DNA of 56,230 nucleotides, taken from the IMG/VR virus record IMGVR_UViG_3300023443_000297, positions 1 through 56,230 of that record. One strand, 5' to 3'. The DNA comes from a virus. The notes under the pieces were generated by a model. The model was not told where the DNA came from. It ran no database searches and was given only the letters and a program-made list of their open reading frames with translations. Shown here one piece after another: positions 719 to 55,439 of the stretch. A program made the translations under genes and the position numbers. Each line of letters opens with the position of its first letter. Position 1 is the stretch's first letter.

Positions 719-1039
719 TCATATGGTGTGGGTTAGCCAGTCCCAGATTCTTCTAAGGCCCTTCTGTTGTTTTTCTTGTTCCTTTTGTAGTTTCATCCTC
801 CAGAACAGGACATCGCGCATCAGTTCGAATTGCCGCAGTAAGTGGGTATTGCTTGGAGTCAGCCCTCTGTAATACTCTCCATCTTGGATAAATACCTCAC
901 CTCCACTGCTGCTGCAGTCCAGGATAGTGCGACCGGTGAAGTCGAACCCAGGCCTAGATCTCAGCCTGGCTATATAAACGTCTATTGATTCCTTTTCCTT
1001 TGCGAACCCTACTAGTGGCTCTTTCTCATACAATGTCAT
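719..1039 (-). CDS. Hypothetical protein (106 aa)
   Basis: No family recognised. The start overlaps the polymerase stop in a TAATG arrangement, which implies translational coupling to the polymerase gene. The C-terminal third (residues about 68-106) is strongly charged and helical, ending in a Trp-rich amphipathic segment (RRIWDWLTHTI). Such a coupled small protein could be a polymerase partner, but nothing in the sequence proves that. Confidence 0.7.
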   Translation of the reverse strand: MTLYEKEPLVGFAKEKESIDVYIARLRSRPGFDFTGRTILDCSSSGGEVFIQDGEYYRGLTPSNTHLLRQFELMRDVLFWRMKLQKEQEKQQKGLRRIWDWLTHTI

Positions 1040-4000
1040 TAGGTTAGGCTACCCCATCTCTCACCGGATTTCAGTTCCACCTTCAGCGGCACCGATAACT
1101 GCATTACGCTTTCCATTACTGGCTTTATCATCTGACCTAGAACCTCTATGTAATCACACTCTACCTCTAGAATAAGCTCATCGTGAACCTGAAGCAGGAA
1201 TCTAAACCACGGTAATTGCCCTGTGTCTCTGAGTTGGAATAGCCTATTGGTGGCGAGTTTAATAATGGCCTGTGCTCCAGATTGGATCGGCATGTTACCC
1301 GCTGCTCTCTCCCCATCACTCCTAATGCGGCGGATAGGGCAGAATAGCTCAGGCATGTACCGGCGGCGACCTACCATGTCTTGAACATACCCCGTGCGTT
1401 TGGCAAAATTGATATGGTGCTGAAGGAATTGCTTGATTTCTGGAAAGCGTTGGTCATATTCTACCAGAAGCCTAGCGCAATCATCAAGGGACCAGCCGTC
1501 AATGCCCTCCTCTATCAGGCCCTCATACAGACCAAGAGGGGTTATGCCGTAGATTATACTGAAGTTCATCCTCTTGGTGGGGTACCGGTATCTAGTCTGT
1601 TTAGCCTCTTCATATGGTATTCCAAACAGGATAGATGCGGTATAGGTGTGAATGTCCAGGTCTTCCCAGAATAACTGAATCAGGCGTTGGGATGCGGATG
1701 CGTGGGCCATTAGACGCATCTCTATTTGCGAGTTATGAGTATAGACACCACAAGTTAGGGCAAACAATGAGCTAGCATTGTCAATTTCTATATCCCATAC
1801 CGGCAGCGATCCTATAGCCTCAACAGAGACAACCTTATGGTTTAACCCGTTCTTACGCGCCTGGTCACTACACCCTATGGAGCAGAACTTCGCCTTCTTA
1901 GAGGGTGAGGCATAGAAGTCAGCTTCACAACAGAAGCAGACTAACATGGGGCCTTTTCGTTTGCCAAAGTTGGGATTATTCTCACCAACATAACTTCTGC
2001 GTTTGGATAGGGCTATCCTTAACCTTTCTAGTCGCAGGGTATGATCCTGACGCGCATAGGACTCTCGACCATCAATAGACATGTGCTCAAAATTGGGAAG
2101 GTACTCTAAGTTGTCTGGGGAGTTATTATGCTTATCTCCATCTTTGTGTTGAGTAGAGTACCCCACTGGTAAAGGACCATAAGCCCACCTAGCTACTTCG
2201 CGATGTTCATAGGTGTAATTGAAATACGATCCGGTATACAGAGTAGTATAGCCATTACCGGCATAGCTGCGCCGCAATGGCATTAGTCTATTACCAGGGG
2301 ATAACTCTGAGGCGTGTTTCAATACTCCTGTATTGAGAGGTACCCTATGGTTAGGAGTACAGGTGAACTGCTCACCGTTGCTTAATTGAACCCGAATACA
2401 CGCCCGCTCGCCAGAATAAACCTTAGCTTTAACCTCAGAGATCATCGGCCTATTGTCACGATCAACGCTGTAGATAGGATCTCCCGGCTCCAACAATTCA
2501 ATCGGCACTTCACCTAAGGGAGTATCCACCCCTGTTCCCTCAGCCAAACAGTAGTCAGGAGCAAGGAACAGATACCCAGGTGGGGCACAGAAGCCATCAC
2601 GGATGCGTCTGCCATCCTCTGACCTGACTGGCATAGCTTGTAGGTTAACCGGGTCAGATGTGGTGAGGCGACCTGTAGCTCCCCGGGTGGCGCGGATTTG
2701 ACACCGGACCCTAGGAATACCTGCTGAGTCCATAACAGCTACACGGGGGAGGACATCAGCGTAGGAGGTCTTGGCCTTGAGTATCTGCCGGTAGTTTAGG
2801 ATCTCCTGAACTAGAGGAATAACCTCATTGGTAGTGGAGTTGCGGATCTTCTTCAACTCTCTATCGTCAGTGGAGGGCAAACCCGATTCTGAGCGTTTGG
2901 TAATTGGGTGGTTTAGCTTACTGCTCCCGTACACCAGATCAGCTACCTGAACCGGGGAGTTGGGATTGAATGAGCCGTAGCCTCCAAGAATAGCACAGTC
3001 AGCAGCGGAAGTATTAAGGCGATCAGTAAACTCTGCGGATAGTTGATTAAGGTGAGGGGGATCTATAGGCATACCGACATCCATCATCTCATTGATAATA
3101 GGCAGCGTGGGAAGATCTATAGCATTGAGTACAAACCCAAGACCAGCCTCATCTATCATATGGAGTAGTTCATCACGGACCCTGATAGTGGCGTCAGCAT
3201 CTCTGCTTGAATAGTAAATAGTATCGGAGTAGGGTACTTGCTCTAGGCTGGCGTCCAGCATCAGGCCTATAACTGATTCTACTTCGGTTCGTTCTGCTGA
3301 GTTAATATCATGCCATCTGCGGTAAGCATCTGTTTCTGGTTTAGTTTCCACATCATCAAGTATCTTCCAGATTTTTCTACTGATATGATTAGGCTTCCTA
3401 TCGTGTGTGAGGATACTACCTGATTTGTTGTCCCATTTGGTCTCAGTTATGGGATCAGGCTCGGCCCAGAGTTCGCATTCCGCTGCCTGAAGATAGTCTA
3501 GAGCCTTACCCTGGCGGTACTGATGAACATAATCATCATAGGAATACATCTCCATCCCACACAGACGGAATGCCAGCTCCTTTAACCCCTGAGGTAACCC
3601 AAGCAGATAGGCTGCTACCATCGTGTCTATGAATCTGGGAATGCGAATGAATTGAGCATCGTAGAGGTAGTTGTGGACGGTTACTAAACTGGTATCAGGT
3701 ATGGCGGTTTGTGGATCTGGAATTAGATGGGCTGGGATAAACCAGGCTGTACCTGGTTCCATACTCACCTGAACTGACCAGAGCTTAGATCCGCCATCTG
3801 GCCCTGGAACAGTCTCAGTGTCCAGGGAGAACTCTGGCTGAGATAGCAAGGCAAGAGCGTGTTCGGTGCTGGTAACCTCTATGTAGTCAGGGTTGGGGTA
3901 GAGATCTGTCGGTACGAATGATAGGGGATCAGCGCCGTTGAGGATCTCCTTTAAGACTCGGAAATCATCGAAGACCATTCTCAGTTGCGGTGTAGTGTAA

Positions 4001-4536
4001 AGCCCTGCAGCAGGGTGATAGGTTGGAAATATTAGCGTGGGTGGAGCACCGTATTCCTCCTCAGCTGAATTACCGACGTACCGCCACTGTGGTATAGAAT
4101 GTGTGTGCTCTACGGTGAGGGTATCATCACCAAGGAGATAACGTATGGCTGGCTGACCCATTGCTACGATGATTTGAGGGCGAATTATATCTATTTCGAG
4201 TTGCAGCCATTTGTCAGCACAGTAGCGGGTGTCGGCTAGGGATGGTGTAGCATTGTTTCTGGGGCGGCATCGGACGCAATTGGTGATGTAGACTTCAGAT
4301 CGCAGGAGATTGAGATAGCTGAGAAGGTCATCCAGCATAATACCAGCAGCGCCGGTGAAGGGTATGCCATCCTCGTCTTCGTGCTCGCCGGGAGCCTCAC
4401 CAACGAAGAGAATGCGGGAGTTGATGGAGCCGATACCGGGTACAGGGCCAAGGCATGATTGGCGCAGATAGCAGTCAGTGCAGGATCGGACTGCTTGGTA
4501 GATGGGGAAGGTTGATGTTGAGGTTTGGGTTACCAT
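1039..4536 (-). CDS. Uracil-DNA glycosylase / 3'-5' exonuclease / family A DNA polymerase fusion, intein-containing (1165 aa)
   Basis: Replicative polymerase with four readable parts. Residues 1-200 are a family 4-type uracil-DNA glycosylase: GEAPGEHEDEDG at 46-57, likely 4Fe-4S cysteines C19, C22, C90 and C106, and the HP motif at H174. Residues about 215-460 are a DnaQ-like proofreading domain with D239/E241, N289-D293 and Y442xxxD446. Residues about 465-1165 are a PolA polymerase: motif A D661 continuing at S936 (DY/SQIEMRL), motif B R984-K988-F992-Y996-G997 and motif C QVHDE 1116-1120. An intein (663-935) interrupts motif A. The 5' nuclease domain of bacterial Pol I is absent. The gene heads an operon that reaches PurZ, dUTPase and ribonucleotide reductase, so it is a candidate DpoZ (2-aminoadenine-preferring polymerase); that preference is inferred, not visible. 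Phage SPO1 polymerase is, from memory, a precedent for a UDG-like fusion. Confidence 0.95.
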   Translation of the reverse strand: MVTQTSTSTFPIYQAVRSCTDCYLRQSCLGPVPGIGSINSRILFVGEAPGEHEDEDGIPFTGAAGIMLDDLLSYLNLLRSEVYITNCVRCRPRNNATPSLADTRYCADKWLQLEIDIIRPQIIVAMGQPAIRYLLGDDTLTVEHTHSIPQWRYVGNSAEEEYGAPPTLIFPTYHPAAGLYTTPQLRMVFDDFRVLKEILNGADPLSFVPTDLYPNPDYIEVTSTEHALALLSQPEFSLDTETVPGPDGGSKLWSVQVSMEPGTAWFIPAHLIPDPQTAIPDTSLVTVHNYLYDAQFIRIPRFIDTMVAAYLLGLPQGLKELAFRLCGMEMYSYDDYVHQYRQGKALDYLQAAECELWAEPDPITETKWDNKSGSILTHDRKPNHISRKIWKILDDVETKPETDAYRRWHDINSAERTEVESVIGLMLDASLEQVPYSDTIYYSSRDADATIRVRDELLHMIDEAGLGFVLNAIDLPTLPIINEMMDVGMPIDPPHLNQLSAEFTDRLNTSAADCAILGGYGSFNPNSPVQVADLVYGSSKLNHPITKRSESGLPSTDDRELKKIRNSTTNEVIPLVQEILNYRQILKAKTSYADVLPRVAVMDSAGIPRVRCQIRATRGATGRLTTSDPVNLQAMPVRSEDGRRIRDGFCAPPGYLFLAPDYCLAEGTGVDTPLGEVPIELLEPGDPIYSVDRDNRPMISEVKAKVYSGERACIRVQLSNGEQFTCTPNHRVPLNTGVLKHASELSPGNRLMPLRRSYAGNGYTTLYTGSYFNYTYEHREVARWAYGPLPVGYSTQHKDGDKHNNSPDNLEYLPNFEHMSIDGRESYARQDHTLRLERLRIALSKRRSYVGENNPNFGKRKGPMLVCFCCEADFYASPSKKAKFCSIGCSDQARKNGLNHKVVSVEAIGSLPVWDIEIDNASSLFALTCGVYTHNSQIEMRLMAHASASQRLIQLFWEDLDIHTYTASILFGIPYEEAKQTRYRYPTKRMNFSIIYGITPLGLYEGLIEEGIDGWSLDDCARLLVEYDQRFPEIKQFLQHHINFAKRTGYVQDMVGRRRYMPELFCPIRRIRSDGERAAGNMPIQSGAQAIIKLATNRLFQLRDTGQLPWFRFLLQVHDELILEVECDYIEVLGQMIKPVMESVMQLSVPLKVELKSGERWGSLT
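1732..2550 (-). other. Intein with HNH homing endonuclease domain inside polymerase motif A (273 aa)
   Basis: Host residues 663-935 are an intein. It begins with Cys663 (CLAEGT, block A), has a block B TxxH (T727-P-N-H730), block F (VWDIEIDNASSLFA) and ends VYTHN935 followed by Ser936 as the +1 nucleophile. Excision restores DY-SQIEMRL, the family A motif A. The middle carries an HNH-type endonuclease signature (HKDGDKHNNSPDNLEYL from H797) and a Cys cluster (CFCC, CSIGC at 867-889) typical of zinc-finger segments in such endonucleases. All splicing residues look intact. The endonuclease would target intein-free copies of the same polymerase site. Confidence 0.93.
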
Positions 4537-4908: not shown

Positions 4909-4937
4909 ATAGTAGCATACCCTTGCCTGTATGTCAA
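4909..4937 (-). promoter_or_regulatory. Sigma70-type promoter A (extended -10) with operator-like spacer
   Basis: On the minus strand the -35 is TTGACA (4937-4932), the spacer is 17 bases, and the -10 is TACTAT (4914-4909) preceded by TGC. The first part of the spacer matches the shared element TTGACA-nnYAGRCAAGGG (4937-4920). An inverted TGTCAAGG follows the -10 near 4905-4898, bracketing it. The -35 overlaps the stop codon of the ERCC4-type nuclease gene. It would drive the polymerase, PurZ and ribonucleotide reductase operon. Confidence 0.8.
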
Positions 4938-9164: not shown

Positions 9165-9194
9165 ATGGTAGCATACGGTTTGAGTGCCTGTCAA
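9165..9194 (-). promoter_or_regulatory. Sigma70-type promoter B
   Basis: Minus strand -35 TTGACA (9194-9189), 18-base spacer, -10 TACCAT (9170-9165) preceded by TATGC. It drives the gene at 8110-9114 and probably the exonuclease/Sak4/XPF genes beyond. The operator-like spacer element is the most diverged copy here (GGCACTCAAACC). Confidence 0.7.
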
Positions 9195-9483: not shown

Positions 9484-11145
9484 CTATCTAGGTGGGAGGT
9501 CAATAGGTACCACTATCACTCCTTTATTGGTATCGGGTGGGAGTTGATTTATTGGTGGGTATTCTGAGCGTTGAGGGGGATCAGGCACCACGTCAGTCCT
9601 CCTTAGTAATCTATCGCGGAACCACTGAGGGGCAAATTGGCTGTTCCTATTCCAGAACCAGCCCCAATGATCATCAACGATCAACACCTCACAGTGATCA
9701 GATGCCGACCTAGTACCCCTACCAGCCTCTTGGACTAAGGTCTGCATTGCATCGAAGCCGCCGAATTCTGGATCATCCTCTGTTCTCGCCTTAGTTACCG
9801 GACTGCGACCGTCAGCGAAAGGGATCTTGCCTACGATTATATATTCGCATTCGGCACCGGGAAAATCCCAGCCTGACGTAACTGCTGGGGACACCAACAG
9901 AGCAGGAGCAGGAGCATGGCGGAACTTGTTAACCATCTCTACTACGTTATCCTGATCATGCGAATGCAGGTATCCTTGGTGTCTGCTATAGGCCATGAAG
10001 AAGTTCCGGCGCTCATAGCTTACTGGAAATAGGATGCCCTTGCGATCCATGCGCCGGTCCATTATCTGATCTATCCTGGCTACCCATTGACGCCGGTCTG
10101 CGTCTGTAGCGCGATGGTCTAGCCTGACTGTCTTGATATGCTGGACCGGTGTATTTCGTGGAGGGTAATAGCTCGGTACTTCTAACCATTGACGCTCTGA
10201 TTCTGGTACACCGAGTAGATCAGCAGTCTTGGGGGTGATTATGGCAGACATCAAGAGTATCTTGCCTGAGTCCTGGTATAGCAATGGCGCATAGACACCC
10301 GGCCATACTGGAGTGAAGGCAAATCCAGTATACTTAGGTTCCCAGGTCCATCTACCTATAGCACCATGAATTGACCTGAGCTTCCTAACTGTTGAGGTTA
10401 TCCTTTTGAGTGCTCGTAGCTCACCAGAAGGAGGAGGGTTGCCGGTGTCATTTGCTGATTTGATATTCGCCTTTAATTCGGTCTCCACATTGGCTACTAC
10501 CTCAGCTGCATTGAAGGCCCATTGCTTCCAGCTAGTCCAATCATCATAGCCTCTCCTAGACAGACGGACGCCGGTTGATTCCACCTCATCTCGGCCTATA
10601 TATACCGACAGGTGCGATTCGATAGCCTTGAAAGCTAGGTGGGCCTCATCCATCACCAGTAGCGGGGCCTTGCCTAAGCCCTCAGGTTGCTGGCTTTGAG
10701 CTAGATAGTAGCTGTAGTTGGTGACGACTAGCTGAGATGATTTGGCTATGCTAAGCTGGTCGTAATAATGACAGCCGTTATTCCTATGCTCACACCATAC
10801 ACCAGCATGACAAGGGCCATCATCTACATTGACCTCTGGGTTTAGGTTACAGACATAGGAGTTCTGGCCTCTAATATCGTTCATGCCGATTTGTGCGAAG
10901 TCTTGAAGCAGTTGGGATTGGAGGCCCTTGGTAGCGGTGAGGATTACAGTGCGATTGCCAGAGACTGAGGATGCTAGAGCTGCTAGAAGGGATTTGCCTG
11001 AGCCAGTGGGAATGGACGCACAGAGGAATCGCTTGTCAGATGCAAGCCAGTCCATGATGGATGAGAACACGCGGTCTTGGCCCTCATACCAAGATGGGAA
11101 TCGGGGGTGGTTGAGGATCAAGGATGGTGCTGGTAAGATAGTCAT
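9484..11145 (-). CDS. DinG/XPD-type superfamily 2 DNA helicase (553 aa)
   Basis: Walker A PTGSGKS (about 46-52), a DEAH box (166-169) and a motif VI-like QEAGRGTRS identify an SF2 helicase. Four cysteines at 99, 112, 118 and 125, between motifs I and II, match the 4Fe-4S cluster of the XPD/DinG/FancJ group, which unwinds 5' to 3'. It is likely to act in phage replication or recombination. It follows a 59-residue gene expressed from promoter C. Length is short of cellular DinG, consistent with a compact phage version. Confidence 0.85.
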   Translation of the reverse strand: MTILPAPSLILNHPRFPSWYEGQDRVFSSIMDWLASDKRFLCASIPTGSGKSLLAALASSVSGNRTVILTATKGLQSQLLQDFAQIGMNDIRGQNSYVCNLNPEVNVDDGPCHAGVWCEHRNNGCHYYDQLSIAKSSQLVVTNYSYYLAQSQQPEGLGKAPLLVMDEAHLAFKAIESHLSVYIGRDEVESTGVRLSRRGYDDWTSWKQWAFNAAEVVANVETELKANIKSANDTGNPPPSGELRALKRITSTVRKLRSIHGAIGRWTWEPKYTGFAFTPVWPGVYAPLLYQDSGKILLMSAIITPKTADLLGVPESERQWLEVPSYYPPRNTPVQHIKTVRLDHRATDADRRQWVARIDQIMDRRMDRKGILFPVSYERRNFFMAYSRHQGYLHSHDQDNVVEMVNKFRHAPAPALLVSPAVTSGWDFPGAECEYIIVGKIPFADGRSPVTKARTEDDPEFGGFDAMQTLVQEAGRGTRSASDHCEVLIVDDHWGWFWNRNSQFAPQWFRDRLLRRTDVVPDPPQRSEYPPINQLPPDTNKGVIVVPIDLPPR

Positions 11146-11378: not shown

Positions 11379-11407
11379 ATTATGTCATACCTCTGTCTGG
11401 TTGTCAA
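11379..11407 (-). promoter_or_regulatory. Sigma70-type promoter C (extended -10) with inverted TGTCAAG
   Basis: Minus strand -35 TTGACA (11407-11402), 17-base spacer, -10 CATAAT (11384-11379) preceded by TGA. The spacer carries the shared CAGRCA element. The 18 bases from the -10 onward (ATAAAGGTGTCAAGGAAA) are identical to the same place in promoter A, giving an inverted TTGACA/TGTCAA pair 28 bases apart. It drives the helicase operon. Confidence 0.8.
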
Positions 11408-13212: not shown

Positions 13213-13241
13213 ACGTTAGCATACCATTGCCTCTGTGTCAA
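13213..13241 (-). promoter_or_regulatory. Probable promoter D
   Basis: Minus strand -35 TTGACA (13241-13236), 17-base spacer, weak -10 TAACGT (13218-13213) with an upstream TGC that could compensate. The spacer contains AGGCAATGG, matching the shared operator-like element. It lies just ahead of the gene at 12669-13187. Confidence 0.6.
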
Positions 13242-47821: not shown

Positions 47822-48135
47822 TTTATCTCGTCCATCCTCTTTATGGTGTACTCAGCATATGAGAGGGATTTGCTACGAGAGCCGCTGCCGGGGGGAAACC
47901 TTTCAGCGTGATCCATAGCTGTATTGAATTCCTGCTGAAGTACAGAGCAGTCGGTTAGGGTGTCAATGCGGACATAGACAGCTGGATGGCCCACCTGCTC
48001 ATTAGCACTACCAGCACAGGCTACTGCTAAAAAAACGAATGCCAATGCAATCACACTTATACAGAGGGTAACCCATTCGGCGTAACACCTGTCACTGGTA
48101 GCTGTAATTTTAGGGTTTATGTTGTTCGATTTCAT
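47815..48135 (-). CDS. Predicted lipoprotein (106 aa)
   Basis: A hydrophobic segment (about 23-39) ends in LAVAC with Cys40 as the probable lipidated residue, then a Tyr/Asp-containing domain (VYVRIDTLTDCSVLQQEFNT) of a type often seen in phage genomes. It would be anchored on the outer face of the cytoplasmic membrane or carried to the outer membrane. Possible roles are superinfection exclusion or an outer spanin. It overlaps the terminase gene's end by ATGA. Confidence 0.7.
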   Translation of the reverse strand: MKSNNINPKITATSDRCYAEWVTLCISVIALAFVFLAVACAGSANEQVGHPAVYVRIDTLTDCSVLQQEFNTAMDHAERFPPGSGSRSKSLSYAEYTIKRMDEIKC

Positions 48136-49337
48136 AGATAAATACCTATTCCTGTCCTTCCTAATTGCAGTCCACTAACAGCTAAGGCTAAGGCGTCAAC
48201 ACAGTCATCATGGAACCCTGGTGGCGCGGTGTACCTGACCCCAGTCCTGGTGTACTCATACTCGAACTCCTCAAGCTCAGCTATAATGATGCTGCTTTCT
48301 GGGATGCCGATATCATGGGATTGGATAGCCACTGCTAGACCCTCCATTATCTGTTGCTTCGAGGATGGTGAGAACTTAAAGGCCTCAATATAACCGCTGC
48401 TAGCTCTTTGCAGCCTTTCGACCACAGGATCACCAACTCCAGTAGCATCAGCCTTAGCTGGAATGCGTCCCACCAGCCTAGTGATGATGCTAAAGGTCTC
48501 TTCCCATGATTTCTGGAATCGTTCAAAACGGCAGACATGACCTCGGTAATCCAATCCAATACACACCGTCCAGTCTATGGATTTAGCAAGGTCTATACCC
48601 CAAATTACGGGGTCATCTTCGCTAAGACCGGCGATTGCACACTCAGCAATGGAGGTTATGCCAAATGGGTTACCTTGGTCATCGGAAGCCTCAGCCCAGT
48701 AAAGCTCCCGGTATACAGCCCCGGGTAGTATATATTCCGCATCACTGATCTCATCTGCGCTAAGAACACCAGCGTCTACCGCATCTTGGGCGGTGATCTT
48801 ATGGTAGGCCATTGTAGCACTGGGATCGGACTCAGCACGACGAGCCAAACGGTATGCCCAATTGCGACGGCCCTTGACATTGCCAATGATGCGAATAGGA
48901 CCCCGGGTGGCGGTAAGAGTGGATCGTACCGCAAACCATGATTCTTCTTTGCAGCGTGTGGCCTCATCGATGACAGCGGCATAGACATCCTCCCCGTAGA
49001 GAGAATCCGGGTCATTAGCACCCTTGAACCACATAACAGCGCCATTGAATAAGGTGATAGTCAGCTCGCTCTCATTAGCCTTATATAGTTGAGATGGGAG
49101 AGCACGCTTGGCACGGCGGAACACTACCTTGGCTTGAGCGTAGATCGGGGATACCCACCAGAAGTTCTGGCCATCTGAGGCCTGTAGGGCTAGTTCTATC
49201 AGCCAGCACATACAGCCTATGGTCTTGCCGGACTTGGTAGAGGCTTCGATTATGCTGTAGCGAGCAGGGTCAAATACAGCACCCTGCTGTTTGGGGTAAA
49301 GACTGGGGCGGGTATAGTGGAGGTTTAGAGTTGTCAT
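48132..49337 (-). CDS. Terminase large subunit (401 aa)
   Basis: ATPase: Walker A EASTKSGKT (31-39) and Walker B VIDEA (122-126). RNase H-like nuclease: D249 (WGIDLA), D297 (DATGVGD) and D377/D378/D381 (HDDCVDALALA). It packages DNA through the portal. Shorter than many terminases but with all catalytic residues. Its first nine codons are duplicated 265 bases upstream (49576-49602). Confidence 0.95.
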   Translation of the reverse strand: MTTLNLHYTRPSLYPKQQGAVFDPARYSIIEASTKSGKTIGCMCWLIELALQASDGQNFWWVSPIYAQAKVVFRRAKRALPSQLYKANESELTITLFNGAVMWFKGANDPDSLYGEDVYAAVIDEATRCKEESWFAVRSTLTATRGPIRIIGNVKGRRNWAYRLARRAESDPSATMAYHKITAQDAVDAGVLSADEISDAEYILPGAVYRELYWAEASDDQGNPFGITSIAECAIAGLSEDDPVIWGIDLAKSIDWTVCIGLDYRGHVCRFERFQKSWEETFSIITRLVGRIPAKADATGVGDPVVERLQRASSGYIEAFKFSPSSKQQIMEGLAVAIQSHDIGIPESSIIIAELEEFEYEYTRTGVRYTAPPGFHDDCVDALALAVSGLQLGRTGIGIYL

Positions 49338-49899: not shown

Positions 49900-50184
49900 T
49901 CACTGCCCACGCGTGGGTGTCCGTTCTGACTCCACTCTAGCTTTTTCTGGCTTCACCTGAAGTAGTACTGGTAATGCTTGCTCAAGGTTCAGAGGGTGCA
50001 TGGAGATTAGTGGTTTCTGTTCCTGCTGGTCATGTTGGATTGCTGAGGTTTGTAGAGTTTCTTCTTCTATCAGGGCTTGAATGTTGTTTATCAAGCTATC
50101 TAGATCGGATAACCGTAATCTCAGCCTGCTAGCCTCGGCTGTATATTGGGAGAGGCGGCCTTCCAACCCTTGTACGAAATTCAT
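49900..50184 (-). CDS. Hypothetical coiled-coil protein (94 aa)
   Basis: Residues about 5-45 are a coiled coil (EGRLSQYTAEASRLRLRLSD), the rest Gln/Pro-rich. It overlaps the small terminase stop by ATGA. Could be a packaging cofactor; unproven. Confidence 0.6.
   Translation of the reverse strand: MNFVQGLEGRLSQYTAEASRLRLRLSDLDSLINNIQALIEEETLQTSAIQHDQQEQKPLISMHPLNLEQALPVLLQVKPEKARVESERTPTRGQ
49916..49936 (-). repeat. 21-bp direct repeat B, copy 1 (within the 49900-50184 gene)
   Basis: Encodes the end of the coiled-coil protein (VESERTP). The identical 21 bases recur at 49548-49568. It adjoins a 12-base palindrome (cccacgcgtggg, 49907-49918). Confidence 0.95.
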
Positions 50185-50726
50185 AACGCTCCAGATTCCT
50201 GATGACCATTCTGATTCTGGTCCGTGTCATGGTCCAGATGCCATTGAGGAGATTCAATTACCCCCATATCTGAATCATCGCTACCACCGTCATCCTCATT
50301 GGCACTGCCCGGCGTATCAAAGCTAATGGTGAAATTGAGATTGCGCTGGTCTATCTTGACAGGCGCATCCAGACCCAGCAGCTTGCATCGGCGGTCGATG
50401 CACTTAAGAACACCATCCAGGAGACTGATAAAAGGCTCAAGCTCGTACGCCTCCCAGTAGGTAGCTTCAAGATCATTCAGCTTAGCTAGCTCATTAGCCT
50501 TCCGGAGATCCAACCGGAGATTGGTTTGCTGCTCCCACTGCTTCTGAACCATTTTGAGATCATAGCTGATCTGTGCTGGTGTGACATTGAGTTCCGCAGC
50601 TATTTTGTAATTGGGTATGCCGCGAAGATTCATACGGATTGCTTTAGAACGGTCAAGGTCACGTTGGAGATTAGAGCGCTTCCGTTGTGCTGGGTTTTGT
50701 GGATTAGATGAATTAGCTAAAGTCAT
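50181..50726 (-). CDS. Terminase small subunit (181 aa)
   Basis: A helix-turn-helix (NYKIAAELNVTPAQISYDLKM) sits in the N-terminal third, followed by a long helical oligomerisation region and an acidic tail (ANEDDGGSDDSDM). This is the usual layout of phage small terminases, which recognise the packaging site. The ATG at 50726 is chosen over a TTG at 50849 that would overlap the promoter region. The ribosome site is weak. Confidence 0.8.
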   Translation of the reverse strand: MTLANSSNPQNPAQRKRSNLQRDLDRSKAIRMNLRGIPNYKIAAELNVTPAQISYDLKMVQKQWEQQTNLRLDLRKANELAKLNDLEATYWEAYELEPFISLLDGVLKCIDRRCKLLGLDAPVKIDQRNLNFTISFDTPGSANEDDGGSDDSDMGVIESPQWHLDHDTDQNQNGHQESGAL

Positions 50727-50868
50727 AGTGGTTATCTTATTAAAGATCGGACTCCGTTGGTGGTATAGGAGCAGATGTTGTAGCTGTTGTAGGCGTAGGT
50801 ACTTATGCACTATAGGCGTGGGGCGGGATTGGCTGCAAGGGCTTGACAACTAGACAAGGGGTGTGGTA
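50727..50868. other. Noncoding region upstream of the terminase genes
   Basis: 142 bases without a gene. It holds the plus-strand promoter and a weak minus-strand promoter possibility (TTGCAG at 50838-50833, TATAGT at 50814-50809, 18-base spacer) that might serve the terminase operon. A packaging site could lie here too, but I see no repeat that marks one. Confidence 0.4.
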
Positions 50869-50872
50869 TCAT
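50843..50872 (+). promoter_or_regulatory. Plus-strand sigma70-type promoter G with operator-like element
   Basis: Plus strand -35 TTGACA (50843-50848), 18-base spacer, extended -10 TGGTATCAT (hexamer 50867-50872). Bases 50843-50860 match the operator-like motif found in promoters A, C, D, E and next to F. It is the only such element facing right. Confidence 0.72.
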
Positions 50873-51072
50873 AATGGGCCTGAATCAGTTAGCTTTGCCC
50901 GTATACCCTGCAATGTCTGAATCCCAACCTCTGAGATAAAAACACCCCTTTTATGTGCGGGGTGTTTTCCGTTGGCAATATAACTAGAACCCTTATTTTC
51001 GACCTGAGCAAGAACTCCAAGTGTTAACCAAAGCTGGCAAGCCTCCTTTTGGGTCAGAGTAACTGTTATCAT
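50869..51072 (-). CDS. Hypothetical protein (67 aa), gene contains a terminator hairpin
   Basis: MITVTLTQKEACQLWLTLGV at the start looks like ordinary coding sequence, and GAGGAG lies 9 bases before the ATG. A 10-bp hairpin with a T-run falls in codons for GKHPAHKRGVF, so part of the transcripts may end inside the gene. A plus-strand RNA from promoter G would be antisense to its second half. It is the last gene of the ribonucleotide reductase operon. Confidence 0.55.
   Translation of the reverse strand: MITVTLTQKEACQLWLTLGVLAQVENKGSSYIANGKHPAHKRGVFISEVGIQTLQGIRAKLTDSGPL
50879..50969 (+). ncRNA. Candidate antisense small RNA (about 90 nt)
   Basis: Predicted from promoter G (start near 50879) to the hairpin at 50939-50968. 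There is no plus-strand open frame with a ribosome site. It would be complementary to the 3' half of the gene at 50869-51072. Prediction only. Confidence 0.45.
50939..50968. terminator. Bidirectional Rho-independent terminator
   Basis: AAAACACCCC-ttttatgtgc-GGGGTGTTTT forms a perfect 10-bp stem. On the minus strand it is followed by TTTTTAT-type sequence; on the plus strand the stem itself ends in TTTT. It would end the polymerase/PurZ/ribonucleotide reductase transcript and any plus-strand RNA from promoter G. Confidence 0.78.
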
Positions 51073-51111
51073 GCCTTCTCACTCCTCTCATTAAGCTGTC
51101 TAGGCTGGCCA

Positions 51112-51318
51112 TTATAACCGGCTGAAGCTACTGGGTACTGGCGGGGTCTGGTTATCAAACGCTCGGACCTTACCACACTTTTTACATACACCGGGGCTCA
51201 TGCGTCTACTGTTGGACACCTCAATCAGCCAGTGATGGACGCACCTAGTAGGATCCCGGGCAGTGCCCCTGGCGGTGCTACTACTCGCAACTGGTGAATC
51301 CACACGCAAGGCAGACAT
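51112..51318 (-). CDS. Small zinc-ribbon protein (68 aa)
   Basis: CVHHWLIE and CKKCGKVRAF make a Cys/His zinc site of a type common in small phage proteins. The ATG at 51318 lies within the end of the ribonucleotide reductase gene with GGGGG upstream, so translation is coupled. Function unknown. Confidence 0.65.
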   Translation of the reverse strand: MSALRVDSPVASSSTARGTARDPTRCVHHWLIEVSNSRRMSPGVCKKCGKVRAFDNQTPPVPSSFSRL

Positions 51319-53776
51319 CGCAACCCCCTCTCTTGGTCATTACTTTTTGCGAGCACTTGGGGCATATTGCGCCAAGATTACTAGTTCCATCAAAATAGGA
51401 ATCCAAAATAGTCTTAGCCGCTTTGGGTGTTATTTCTTCCTCGTCCACGTCTACACTACCCTCCTCATTACCAAGCTCACCAGCTATAGCATAGCTCAGA
51501 GCATCATAAACCGAGGTCACTAACCGACCATCTACCCAGGCTGAATGACCACAATCGATACCCCTAAGTTGTTCAATTATGACACTGGAATCCACATCAG
51601 ATCGCAAAGCCATAGATATCAGACGGCCTACTGCTGTCGCTCCTGCTCTGACACAGGGGTTATTCTCTGCTGGAGTTAGGAATACCTCTACTGGCTGACC
51701 ATCATTTAGGCTGGTGTTAACAGTGAAGAACCAGGAGCCATGACCGGTATTGGAATGGATGGTATGGCCGGGGAGGGATCGCGGTCTGGGTTGGGGCTTG
51801 CTATGGGTATGGGTGTGGGTTTGTTGGGACTGCGACTTACTGATGTGGTCTGCAGGTTCATAGTTAGGATTCCATTGGTCCCAAGTCCGGACTGGCATAA
51901 CTGGTATAACTGGCATAACTGGCGCTGTCCAAGACTTAAACACTGGGAGATCAGATAACTCAATGGGTACATCGCCGGTGTTATGGATCTCAAAAGTCTT
52001 AAGCTCGGGCTTAGGGTTAGGTCGCCTACCGACCTCCTCAACTGAGCTAAGAGAGCTAAGGATCTGGGTCCCCTTGCTGTTGTCCCTATACACAGTGACG
52101 GCCTTACAGCCTAGATTATGTGCGAGCTTGAAAGCGTCACTGATGTCCTTTACAGTAGCAGATTCGGGTAGGTTTATGGTTTTGCTAATGCTGTTCGTAA
52201 TTCCAGATTGCCAAGCTGCCTGCATTCGGACGTGGTTCTCTGGGGATATCTGGTGAGCAGTGCGGAATAGGTTCAGTTTCTCCTTTCCGATTTGTGACTC
52301 TATCTCTCCAGGACTCATTAGATAATAGGGGCCTTCAGGCAGCATTTCCCATAGAGGTGCTGGGCATTCTATGAAGGTAGACCTATTTTCGCCATCGGAG
52401 TGCCAGATAGCCTTGCGTTCCCACATGAGAGCGTAATGGGGCTCAATACCGCTGGAGCAGCCTGCGATTATGGAGATGCTACCGGTAGGAGCGATGCAGG
52501 TGACTGAGGAATTGCGATAACCGTATTCCGCTATTACATCGGAGTTTCTTCTGAGACTGGACTCAGGCCAGTTGGGGAATGCACCCTTTTCCTTAGCCAG
52601 TGCAGCAGAGGCATCCCAGGCGGTAATGGTTATGAACTGGCTGAGAGTCTTGGCTAGGTCTAGAGCGGTATTGGAGTCATACTTGATGCCCATACGCACT
52701 AGGAGATCAGCCCAGCCCATCACACCAAGACCTATGCGACGGGTAAGTTGATTCATCTCGGAGAACCGGGCAACTGGGAATTGGTTGACATCTATCACGT
52801 TGTCTAAGAACCGGACTGCTGTATAGATATCGTCCTCTAATAGAGCATAATTAATTACAGTGTCCCCAGTAGGGACAAGGCGGTCCAAAGTAGCATAGAG
52901 GCTGAGGTTGAGGGAGCCTAGGTTACAGCTAGAGCCATCCTCTAGGAATTCCTCACCGCAGGGGTTGGAGGACTGGATAGGGCCTAGATTGGCATTGGGG
53001 GCATCTTCGTGCACCCGGTCCATGAACACCACACCAGGATCACCGGTAGCCCAGGCTGATTGACAGATGGCATCCCATATCTCTTTGGCATCTACAGTTC
53101 TCACCACATCGCCGTTCCTAGGGTTAATAAGAGATACGAATTCTCCCATTGCCCCCTTAGACAGAGTATCCATGAACTCATCGGTGATCTGCACACTGAT
53201 GTTGAAATTAGACAGGGTATCAGTTGGCTTCAGGCACTTATCCTTGCAGTGGATGAACTCCATTATGTCAGGGTGAGTGCAGTGAAGTTGAGCCATATGC
53301 GCCCCCTGTCTGATCGCACCTTGAGTAAAGGTGCTGCCTCCGACTGAGTACCAATTGAGAGTGCGTACCGGTCCACAAGCACCATCCTCATGAGGACCTA
53401 CTTTATCACCAGCTGGGCGAAGGCGAGATAGACCAAATCCTACACCACCGCCAGAAGCCTCAATTAGGGCCATCTGTGCACCTACTTTGATGATGGACTC
53501 CAGGGTATCGGTGGGTGAGTCCACGAAGCAGGCAGATAGACAGTGGGTTGAGTTGGGAACGCCAGCATGTGCTAGGGTAGGGGTATTGGGGAGGAACCGG
53601 AGGGAGGACATGAGGTTGTAGAACTTGTCCTCCCACTTATCCACCCTATTTGGAACCGTCTCAGCGCCAGCTACATGCCTAGCTACACGGCGGAACATAT
53701 CATCCGGAGTCTCACCGTGCTGTATGTAGGGGCGCTGGTAGATAACCTCAAGAGCATTACGAGTTAGCTGGACCAT
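51281..53776 (-). CDS. nrdJ: Class II (adenosylcobalamin-dependent) ribonucleotide reductase (831 aa)
   Basis: Reduces ribonucleotides to deoxyribonucleotides using vitamin B12. Key residues: C83 in LSACFV and C284 in SCNLGSLNL as the redox pair, C273 in NPCGEE as the radical Cys. IGLGVMGWADLL and a PTGSISIIAG-type loop are also present. A TSCPD-like domain lies about 690-780 and the C-terminus has CPKC...CLACGFTSC, a zinc/thiol region used to reload electrons. The N-terminal ATP cone is absent. Length is normal and no intein is present. Located after dUTPase and PurZ, it feeds dNTP supply. Confidence 0.94.
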   Translation of the reverse strand: MVQLTRNALEVIYQRPYIQHGETPDDMFRRVARHVAGAETVPNRVDKWEDKFYNLMSSLRFLPNTPTLAHAGVPNSTHCLSACFVDSPTDTLESIIKVGAQMALIEASGGGVGFGLSRLRPAGDKVGPHEDGACGPVRTLNWYSVGGSTFTQGAIRQGAHMAQLHCTHPDIMEFIHCKDKCLKPTDTLSNFNISVQITDEFMDTLSKGAMGEFVSLINPRNGDVVRTVDAKEIWDAICQSAWATGDPGVVFMDRVHEDAPNANLGPIQSSNPCGEEFLEDGSSCNLGSLNLSLYATLDRLVPTGDTVINYALLEDDIYTAVRFLDNVIDVNQFPVARFSEMNQLTRRIGLGVMGWADLLVRMGIKYDSNTALDLAKTLSQFITITAWDASAALAKEKGAFPNWPESSLRRNSDVIAEYGYRNSSVTCIAPTGSISIIAGCSSGIEPHYALMWERKAIWHSDGENRSTFIECPAPLWEMLPEGPYYLMSPGEIESQIGKEKLNLFRTAHQISPENHVRMQAAWQSGITNSISKTINLPESATVKDISDAFKLAHNLGCKAVTVYRDNSKGTQILSSLSSVEEVGRRPNPKPELKTFEIHNTGDVPIELSDLPVFKSWTAPVMPVIPVMPVRTWDQWNPNYEPADHISKSQSQQTHTHTHSKPQPRPRSLPGHTIHSNTGHGSWFFTVNTSLNDGQPVEVFLTPAENNPCVRAGATAVGRLISMALRSDVDSSVIIEQLRGIDCGHSAWVDGRLVTSVYDALSYAIAGELGNEEGSVDVDEEEITPKAAKTILDSYFDGTSNLGAICPKCSQKVMTKRGGCDVCLACGFTSCE
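51892..51918. repeat. 9-bp tandem repeat (ctggcataa, 3 copies) in the ribonucleotide reductase gene
   Basis: Three 9-base units, one with a single change, encode an MPVIPVMPV stretch in the linker before the TSCPD domain. Confidence 0.9.
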
Positions 53777-53969
53777 TAGGGTATTTTCCTCCTAGTGCGT
53801 TTAGCTTTCTTAGTATTGGTCTGGTGCTGCCCCCGATAGGCTGGTCATAGAAACTGCTGCCGCAATGGGGGCATTTATCTGGGATCTCAACTCTGCTATC
53901 CCAACAGTGACCACACCGAACACAGTGGTGATAATCGTGACAACCTGAATCAGAGTCCAGTTGAGCCAT
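53757..53969 (-). CDS. Small rubredoxin/zinc-ribbon-like protein (70 aa)
   Basis: CVRCGHCW and CPHCGSS, about 18 residues apart, form a Cx2C...Cx2C metal site like zinc ribbons. The ATG at 53969 sits inside the dUTPase end with AAGGG close upstream. Next to ribonucleotide reductase, a redox role is conceivable but unproven. Confidence 0.65.
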   Translation of the reverse strand: MAQLDSDSGCHDYHHCVRCGHCWDSRVEIPDKCPHCGSSFYDQPIGGSTRPILRKLNALGGKYPNGPANS

Positions 53970-54381
53970 AACCCTTGTCACCTCTATCGGATTGGGATAA
54001 TTTGTCCACTAGCAGAACATTGGGGGTTACCAGGGGAATAAGTACCAACTGAGCTATGCGATCCCCCACTTTGATATGAACATCCTCACCGTTTAGGTTA
54101 AGGACTGTGGCATTGACAGGTCCCCGATAACCATTATCCAAGACGCCAGTCATTACGTGCAGACCGCGAACCTGTAGAGATGAGGATCTGCCTGCTATAA
54201 GTCCCCACGTTCCAACGGGAGGCTCAATGTTAAGATTGTGCCCTATATTGACAACTATGTTAGGGGGGATAATGTAGTCCTCTGCAACATAGAGATCATA
54301 GCCACAGTCGCCTAGGTGGGACTTGGTTGGTAAGTGGAAATAGATGCCATGGTTAATCACACTGACTTTGATAGTTAACAT
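53950..54381 (-). CDS. dut: dUTPase (143 aa)
   Basis: All five trimeric dUTPase motifs are visible: GYDLYV, GRSSSL, GVLDNGYRG, KVGDRIAQLV and DRGDKGYGSTG. It hydrolyses dUTP to dUMP, keeping uracil out of DNA and making thymidylate precursor. This complements the uracil-DNA glycosylase domain of the polymerase. ATG at 54381 overlaps the PurZ stop (TAATG). Confidence 0.95.
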   Translation of the reverse strand: MLTIKVSVINHGIYFHLPTKSHLGDCGYDLYVAEDYIIPPNIVVNIGHNLNIEPPVGTWGLIAGRSSSLQVRGLHVMTGVLDNGYRGPVNATVLNLNGEDVHIKVGDRIAQLVLIPLVTPNVLLVDKLSQSDRGDKGYGSTGL

Positions 54382-55439
54382 TATAAAGCTGCTCCCACTC
54401 TGCACCGTGTAGCCAATTGCGGAGTTATTATACCAGGCCCAGTGCTAACCCATTTGATATCAATATCGCAGACCTCCTCAAGAGAATCCAATGTCTTACC
54501 GGCGAACTCTCTAATATCATCCTCGTTAGTGGAGTTCTTTAGAAATGGGTGTAGATAGTCTAAGAAGGTCAGGCAAACAAAATCAGGCCTGCATACCTTA
54601 ACCATACGGCGGATCTGGTCAGGGTCGAACTCACCGACACGCCTGACTCTGCCAGTGACTGTAGTGTATTCTTCAGGCTGGCCTATGCTACCCCAGGTGG
54701 TCTCATGTGCCATTGGACCTGAGGTACCTGCAACACGTATAGGGAAGGTTCGGACCACTGCAATTACCTGGTGATCAAGTCGGGAGGATAATCCGGCGTC
54801 ATTTAGGATCTGACCTGGGGTGACATCACGGCTGGTAGTGTACGGGTAATGTCCGGAATGAGTCAGGCTGAGATCGAAGCCTTGGGTAGACTCAATGATG
54901 ATGTCCTTACCCGAGTCGTATATGGAGTTGAGTTCATCCGAAACTGAGCCTACTTTGAAGTTGGGATTGGTAAGGTGCTGGGCTAGTTGGGCTGACCTTC
55001 TTGTGTGGTTGGCTCGGGCACTACCGATGCCCTCCTTAGTTGAGGATATAGAGGACATCATGGTTGATTTCTGTTCTTCGATTTTGTCACTGTCTTGGAT
55101 GATGATTGCAGACCGGTCAATAACTAACCTGGGAACTAACCTGGGAGGACGATCTTCTAACAAAATACTGGTCTGGGCAAGCTCATTGGTAAGAACCTTG
55201 TAATCTATCAGGGAACCAGGCCCGATGAACAGTGGGACATCAGGCAAGTGCCAAGCGCAGGGGATTTGCCGCATCTTATAGGGGATCTGGTTATAGGTCA
55301 TGGTATGTCCAGCGTTGGGTCCTCCTGTGCGAACCACTGCACCAAGAGTGCCAGAGGAATAGAGCTTGGTAGCGAGATAGGCTACGAATTCACCCTTGCC
55401 CTCAGAACCAGCTTGGCCTCCCATTACTAAGTAGATCAC
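54381..55439 (-). CDS. purZ: PurZ: N6-succino-2-amino-2'-deoxyadenylate synthase (352 aa)
   Basis: Homologue of adenylosuccinate synthetase that uses dGMP and Asp to start synthesis of the base Z (2-aminoadenine). The P-loop reads GGQAGSEGKG (7-16): Ser12 stands where PurA has its catalytic Asp (GDEGKG), the known signature of PurZ. Other conserved segments remain: GGPNAGHT (39-46, with His45), ESTQGFDLSLTHSGHYPY, TVTGRVRRVG and STGPG. The protein is shorter than cellular PurA (about 430), as in other PurZ. GTG start with AGGAGGT 6-7 bases upstream. The host PurB is normally needed to finish the reaction. Confidence 0.92.
   Translation of the reverse strand: MIYLVMGGQAGSEGKGEFVAYLATKLYSSGTLGAVVRTGGPNAGHTMTYNQIPYKMRQIPCAWHLPDVPLFIGPGSLIDYKVLTNELAQTSILLEDRPPRLVPRLVIDRSAIIIQDSDKIEEQKSTMMSSISSTKEGIGSARANHTRRSAQLAQHLTNPNFKVGSVSDELNSIYDSGKDIIIESTQGFDLSLTHSGHYPYTTSRDVTPGQILNDAGLSSRLDHQVIAVVRTFPIRVAGTSGPMAHETTWGSIGQPEEYTTVTGRVRRVGEFDPDQIRRMVKVCRPDFVCLTFLDYLHPFLKNSTNEDDIREFAGKTLDSLEEVCDIDIKWVSTGPGIITPQLATRCRVGAAL

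What the first reader, a model, noticed from the sequence alone, without database searches (positions are those of the whole stretch)
50843..50969. Lone rightward promoter and terminator define a possible antisense RNA
All genes face left, yet a strong extended -10 promoter faces right and a 10-bp hairpin terminator lies 70 bases downstream, giving an RNA of about 90 nt antisense to the end of the ribonucleotide reductase operon, right at the boundary with the packaging genes. It could control the early-to-late switch.
Basis: partly seen in the sequence, partly recalled or inferred. Interest (0 to 1): 0.72.

Follow-up and report, generated by a model that had tools for sequence, protein, structure and literature searches.

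The report
Gene-less reverse promoter-terminator unit in phage
A phage whose genes all point one way has one copy of its own early promoter pointing the other way into a terminator; related phages keep a whole reversed gene in this slot, so this is probably an emptied version that can make only a roughly 90-letter RNA, whose function is unproven.

Summary
A rightward promoter (50843-50872, TTGACA-18-TGG-TATCAT) faces a perfect 10-bp hairpin (50939-50968) between the end of the RNR operon and the terminase genes; all recognisable genes face left. It is not a lone consensus match: it belongs to a six-member promoter family of this phage that shares a spacer dyad (CTTGAC-N5-GNCAA) overlapping the -35. 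The other five drive leftward early genes. The same promoter type occurs in PurZ actinophages, Korravirus (Arthrobacter) and Goodmanvirus (Microbacterium). There, in the same slot between dUTPase and terS, reverse promoters of this type drive reverse genes; in Goodman-like phages one reverse gene runs toward a convergent hairpin. The window keeps promoter and hairpin but no gene; a relative of the missing gene lies at 17316-18026. The hairpin is at least as good a terminator leftward, and one of only two perfect stems of 9 bp or more in the window, both at operon borders. Best reading: a gene-less version of a known counter-oriented early unit, making a short RNA or insulating the border. A dedicated antisense switch is possible but unsupported: overlap with coding sequence is doubtful, and the two closest terminase-bearing contigs lack the promoter.

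The parts
50843..50872 (+). rightward promoter TTGACA-18-TGG-TATCAT, sixth member of the phage's early promoter family
50842..50858 (.). operator-like dyad CTTGACAACTAGACAAG overlapping the -35, one base from the perfect dyad in L071
   Evidence: binding by any protein not shown
50879..50972 (+). predicted short RNA of about 90-94 nt; no ribosome site or credible ORF
   Evidence: inferred from promoter and hairpin; folds; not observed
50939..50968 (.). perfect 10-bp hairpin with T-runs on both sides: probable bidirectional terminator, leftward for the early operon and rightward for the RNA
50869..51072 (-). 67-aa ORF overlapped by the RNA; first half scores like coding sequence, second half (holding the hairpin) does not; no relatives found
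50181..50726 (-). terS-like gene (ATG at 50726) on the other side of the promoter
48132..49337 (-). terminase large subunit
51281..53776 (-). ribonucleotide reductase, end of the early operon
17205..17234 (-). leftward family promoter
13213..13241 (-). leftward family promoter
11379..11407 (-). leftward family promoter
9165..9194 (-). leftward family promoter (weakest spacer match)
4909..4937 (-). leftward family promoter
17256..17280 (-). perfect 11-bp hairpin with leftward tail TAATTTTT, at the other operon border
17316..18026 (-). protein with the CLCGCG...QGHD motif, distant relative of the reverse genes in Goodman and Korravirus
18023..18322 (-). HTH_3 protein, candidate regulator of the dyad
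   Evidence: binding not tested

Best explanation
The feature is a counter-oriented early transcription unit without a gene. Shown by sequence: its promoter is one of six copies of the phage's promoter/operator family, and it points into a hairpin that can also end the leftward early operon. Related phages have the same promoter type at the same genome position, driving reverse protein genes. Inferred: this phage or an ancestor lost or moved the reverse gene, leaving promoter and terminator, so the unit can make only a short untranslated RNA of about 90 nt when the early promoters are on. Inferred: its most likely present effect, if any, is at the boundary itself, where head-on transcription plus the bidirectional hairpin keeps early transcription from running into the packaging operon; the dyad would shut this promoter off together with the other early promoters. 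A function of the RNA itself as an antisense molecule is not shown.
For: Spacer and dyad shared with five leftward early promoters. Same promoter type in Korravirus and Goodmanvirus, with reverse copies in the dUTPase-terS slot driving reverse genes. Six further Goodman-like phages have the reverse promoter 90-92 bp from the terS side (window: 117 bp from the terS ATG) and one reverse gene; a convergent hairpin just beyond the gene was found in all of the seven except Jera. All other family promoters that were read lead to start codons; this one leads to a hairpin after 66 nt. A relative of the slot's gene lies elsewhere in the window. The hairpin has T-runs on both sides and the window's only other perfect stem of 9 bp or more also sits at an operon border.
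Against: The two closest contigs by terminase, L071 and L074, lack the reverse promoter, so gene loss from an ancestral reverse unit is not demonstrated. The gene relation rests on a short motif (E=0.002 over 20-50 residues). Goodman and Korravirus are distant (PurZ 35-36%). The rightward T-run is short (TTTTCC). No expression data.
Confidence: 0.55

Rival explanations
1. Dedicated cis-antisense RNA of the lambda OOP kind: the RNA pairs with the 3' end of the last early gene on read-through mRNA, triggers cleavage, and so helps the early-to-late change.
For: The anatomy matches: short RNA, promoter just downstream of the overlapped ORF's stop and pointing back into it, terminator inside that ORF. 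Promoter of the early family.
Against: The overlapped half of the ORF does not score as coding and the ORF has no relatives. Absent from L071 and L074. Relatives carry a protein gene in the slot. The leftward transcript probably ends at the same hairpin, so the shared duplex would be short.
Confidence: 0.2
2. Inert relic: promoter and hairpin remain after gene loss and the rightward transcript has no effect at all.
For: No gene, no ribosome site, no trans pairing of 11 nt or more; patchy presence in relatives.
Against: Promoter and dyad are intact and as good as the working family members, which an old relic should not be.
Confidence: 0.18
3. Replication element: the rightward transcript primes or opens an origin at the early/late border.
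For: Cumulative GC skew has its minimum near 50-51 kb.
Against: Third-codon-position skew of genes does not flip there; nothing else at the site marks an origin; the skew can follow gene-module composition.
Confidence: 0.05

Closest known systems
Reverse gene unit at the dUTPase-terS junction of Microbacterium phage Goodman and relatives (gene 62)
   Same: Position, orientation against all neighbouring genes, same promoter family, hairpin at the convergent end
   Different: There a gene of about 160 codons lies between promoter and hairpin; here only 66 nt
Five leftward genes of Arthrobacter Korravirus (cluster AK), Glenn genes 54-58
   Same: Same slot after dUTPase, several reverse promoters of the family; five leftward genes noted in PMC5513430
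   Different: Several protein genes instead of none; cos-ended genome
Lambda pO and OOP RNA
   Same: Short RNA from a lone reverse promoter just downstream of a gene, terminator inside that gene's 3' end; pO also acts by convergent transcription (PMC3985674)
   Different: OOP has a shown target (cII) and effect; here target, effect and even expression are unknown; no sequence relation tested
Repeated intergenic motifs of Microbacterium phage clusters EC, EG and EI (PMC7302621)
   Same: Repeated motifs upstream of phage genes in the same host group, some of them inverted repeats
   Different: Different sequences; none reported in that paper's text for cluster EJ (Goodman)

Membership tests
Phage early promoter family (TTGACA with dyad spacer, extended -10) | TTGACA, 17-18 nt spacer, TGn, TANNNT | tested here: met
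Phage early promoter family (TTGACA with dyad spacer, extended -10) | shared spacer and flank beyond the sigma-70 consensus | tested here: met
   best untrained position in the window, though only just ahead of one without TTGACA
Phage early promoter family (TTGACA with dyad spacer, extended -10) | leads to a start codon | tested here: not met
   the feature describes the other members' use rather than the promoter itself
Counter-oriented unit of Goodmanvirus | lies between the end of the early operon and terS, pointing away from terS | tested here: met
Counter-oriented unit of Goodmanvirus | convergent hairpin shared with the early operon | tested here: met
Counter-oriented unit of Goodmanvirus | carries a CxCGCG-PGHD protein gene | tested here: not met
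   only 66 nt between promoter and hairpin
OOP-like cis-antisense RNA | short RNA from a reverse promoter just downstream of a gene | tested here: met
   by sequence only
OOP-like cis-antisense RNA | overlaps the coding end of a real gene | tested here: inconclusive
OOP-like cis-antisense RNA | lowers the target through RNase III | not testable with these tools
   needs RNA from infection
Known structured RNA families (Rfam 15) | match above gathering score | tested here: not met
   no match in the window

The most novel reading that the evidence does not exclude
An early-regulated, RNA-only counter-transcription unit that holds early transcription out of the packaging operon while the early promoters are active, and is released when a regulator binds the shared dyad: a transcription insulator for the early/late border, coupled to the early promoters by a common operator.
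Probability: 0.17. Interest if true: 0.6.

Novelty: new variant of a known kind. Interest (0 to 1): 0.36.

Why it matters
It ties a sequence-only hint of an antisense RNA to a promoter/operator family shared by PurZ phages of Arthrobacter, Microbacterium and uncultured hosts; the texts read on those phages do not mention promoters. It points to a repeatedly occupied reverse slot at the early/late border, and makes testable whether that slot's promoter matters by itself or only for the gene it carries elsewhere.

Tried and rejected
Close DNA relatives: no match for 49.0-53.8 kb in 50,697 phage records. Relatives of the overlapped ORF: none. terS alone as query: none; an alignment found 14 loci, none with a family promoter facing away from terS in the region scanned. 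RNR relatives L009-L011 are distant (32-41%) and carry no family promoter. Bacterial genomes holding the strict promoter pattern: six scattered MAG hits, no host signal. tRNA or Rfam identity: none. Trans pairing of the RNA: nothing of 11 nt or more. A leftward promoter for terS: only a weak candidate (TTGCAG-18-TATAGT, 50838 to 50809), which did not reach the score cut-off of the scan. Replication origin from GC skew: not backed by third-position skew. The first codon-score run scored some stretches out of frame; one search replaces it. The single-sequence fold of the 67-aa ORF was uninformative.

Full report
The record. The window is a 56,230-base linear IMG/VR virus record. Recognised genes are all on the minus strand: DNA polymerase 1039-4536, helicase 9484-11145, tape measure 21897-24473, capsid and portal 33-38 kb, TerL 48132-49337, RNR 51281-53776, dUTPase 53950-54405 and PurZ 54381-55439.

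The observation. A rightward TTGACA-18-TGG-TATCAT lies at 50843-50872 and a perfect 10-bp stem at 50939-50968. By sigma-70 matrix score the promoter ranks third in the window; 5% of shuffled windows contain a site as good. Alone that is only suggestive.

Why the promoter is probably real. The spacer matches that of five strong leftward promoters (4937, 9194, 11407, 13241, 17234); the consensus is about CTTGACA-NNN-AGRCAAGG-..-TRTGn-TANNNT. A matrix built from those five finds 50843 and no further site on either strand. That matrix includes the sigma-70 elements I had selected on, so I repeated the test with hexamers and TG removed: 50843 is still the best untrained position of 112,380, though the next is close (12.7 against 12.4, without a TTGACA), and the six family sites stand apart from the other 31 TTGACA sites (10.3 or more against at most 1.9). 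The shared part is a dyad, CTTGAC-N5-GNCAAG, overlapping the -35; contig L071 (81% identical TerL) has the perfect form CTTGACAACTAGTCAAG in a forward promoter. It looks like an operator for a phage regulator. An HTH_3 protein at 18023-18322 is a candidate, but binding is not shown. The five leftward promoters lie in the early region, 4.9-17.2 kb, and lead to start codons. No strict family member lies in the late region between terS and 17.3 kb. The sixth sits at the early/late border and faces backward.

The hairpin. It has T-runs on both sides, TTTTTATC leftward and TTTTCCGTT rightward, and folds as well leftward as rightward. It is one of two perfect stems of 9 bp or more in the window; the other (17256-17280, leftward tail TAATTTTT) sits at the opposite border, just ahead of promoter 17234. 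Relative L074 has a T-tailed GC-rich hairpin just ahead of terS (sequence). So its first job is probably to end the leftward early operon, and it would end the rightward RNA as well (inference).

What the RNA overlaps. Not RNR, which ends at 51281, but the second half of a 67-aa ORF (50869-51072). That ORF has a plausible ribosome site; its first half scores like coding sequence and its second half, which holds the hairpin, does not (short stretches, so weak). It has no relatives and no confident fold.

Relatives and the slot. A pattern scan for the promoter led to Arthrobacter phage Glenn, and PurZ similarity to Microbacterium phage Goodman. Both have this window's gene order, ending in PurZ, dUTPase and then a small reverse-strand block before terS. 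In Goodman the block is one gene, driven by a reverse promoter GGACTTGACACGAAGTCACGGGTATGGTTGACT. Rasovi, Typher, Jera, Cicada, IndiRoo and SBlackberry have the same kind of promoter 90-92 bp from the terS-side end of the record and one reverse gene; a 10-11 bp convergent hairpin just beyond the gene was found in all of the seven except Jera. Goodman's genome is circularly permuted (PMC7302621), so the record end joins terS. In Korravirus, genes 54-58 occupy the slot with several reverse promoters of the family; cluster AK's five leftward genes are noted in PMC5513430. The word promoter occurs in neither paper's main text. Gordonia phage Ghobes has no reverse gene there.

The cargo. Goodman gp62 and Glenn gp56-58 share a CxCGCG...(Y)xPGHD motif. 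The window has a relative at 17316-18026 next to its HTH gene, as do contigs G001 and G002. So this phage has that gene type elsewhere and an empty reverse slot. The match is short (E=0.002), so movement of a gene is inference.

Closest contigs. L071 has no RNR between its zinc-ribbon gene and terS and no reverse promoter; L074 has an RNR end, small ORFs, a hairpin and a forward promoter ahead of terS, but no reverse promoter. The unit is therefore scattered among relatives, and its history is uncertain.

How it most likely works. When early promoters fire, RNA polymerase starts near 50879, runs about 90 nt and stops at the shared hairpin (inferred). No ribosome site is visible on the RNA. The probable effect is local, through convergent transcription and termination at the border; control by the dyad would couple it to the early promoters. 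Lambda pO shows that such a convergent promoter can act by polymerase interference rather than through its RNA (PMC3985674), which is a lead and not a test. Antisense action on a read-through transcript remains possible.

Verdict. The promoter, the hairpin and the border are as described; most likely this is a gene-less form of a counter-oriented early unit that related actinophages carry with genes. The host is probably an actinobacterium (inference from promoter type and gene order). No expression evidence exists.

Noticed in passing
1039-4536 (-): The DNA polymerase frame (1165 aa) carries an HNH-endonuclease-like stretch (about residues 758-896) between polymerase-matching parts: possibly an intein.
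   Followed up: no
17316-18026 (-); contigs G001, G002, G008; Goodman gp62; Glenn gp56-58: A small protein family with a CxC...GHD motif recurs next to promoters of this family in several phage groups; function unknown.
   Followed up: partly
L056/G002, L046/G008, L160-L162, L071: The promoter/operator type TTGACA-N5-GNCAA-..-TGn-(TATAAT-like) recurs within several phages and appears to be a shared control motif.
   Followed up: partly
50740-50878 (-): The leftward leader before terS is C-rich, G-poor and unstructured (fold z = +0.47; local GC skew +0.36 on the + strand); it could be a Rho-loading or packaging site.
   Followed up: no
50869-53776, compared with L071:2057-2293: RNR with its two small downstream ORFs is an extra segment relative to L071, which goes straight from the zinc-ribbon gene to terS.
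   Followed up: partly
18344-18373 (-): TTGACC-18-TATAAT ahead of the HTH gene, with a second dyad-like copy (TTGACTCCTAGACAAAGG) just upstream: a weaker possible seventh family member.
   Followed up: partly
L011:10504 and L011:11826: An RNR-bearing 79-kb contig has its own repeated promoter, TTGACAACTTTTTAAAAGGATG(C/T)TACACT, with a different spacer.
   Followed up: no
16124-16510 (-): Weak similarity to Q-like antiterminators (PHROG 127, E=2e-4), not confirmed by Pfam.
   Followed up: partly
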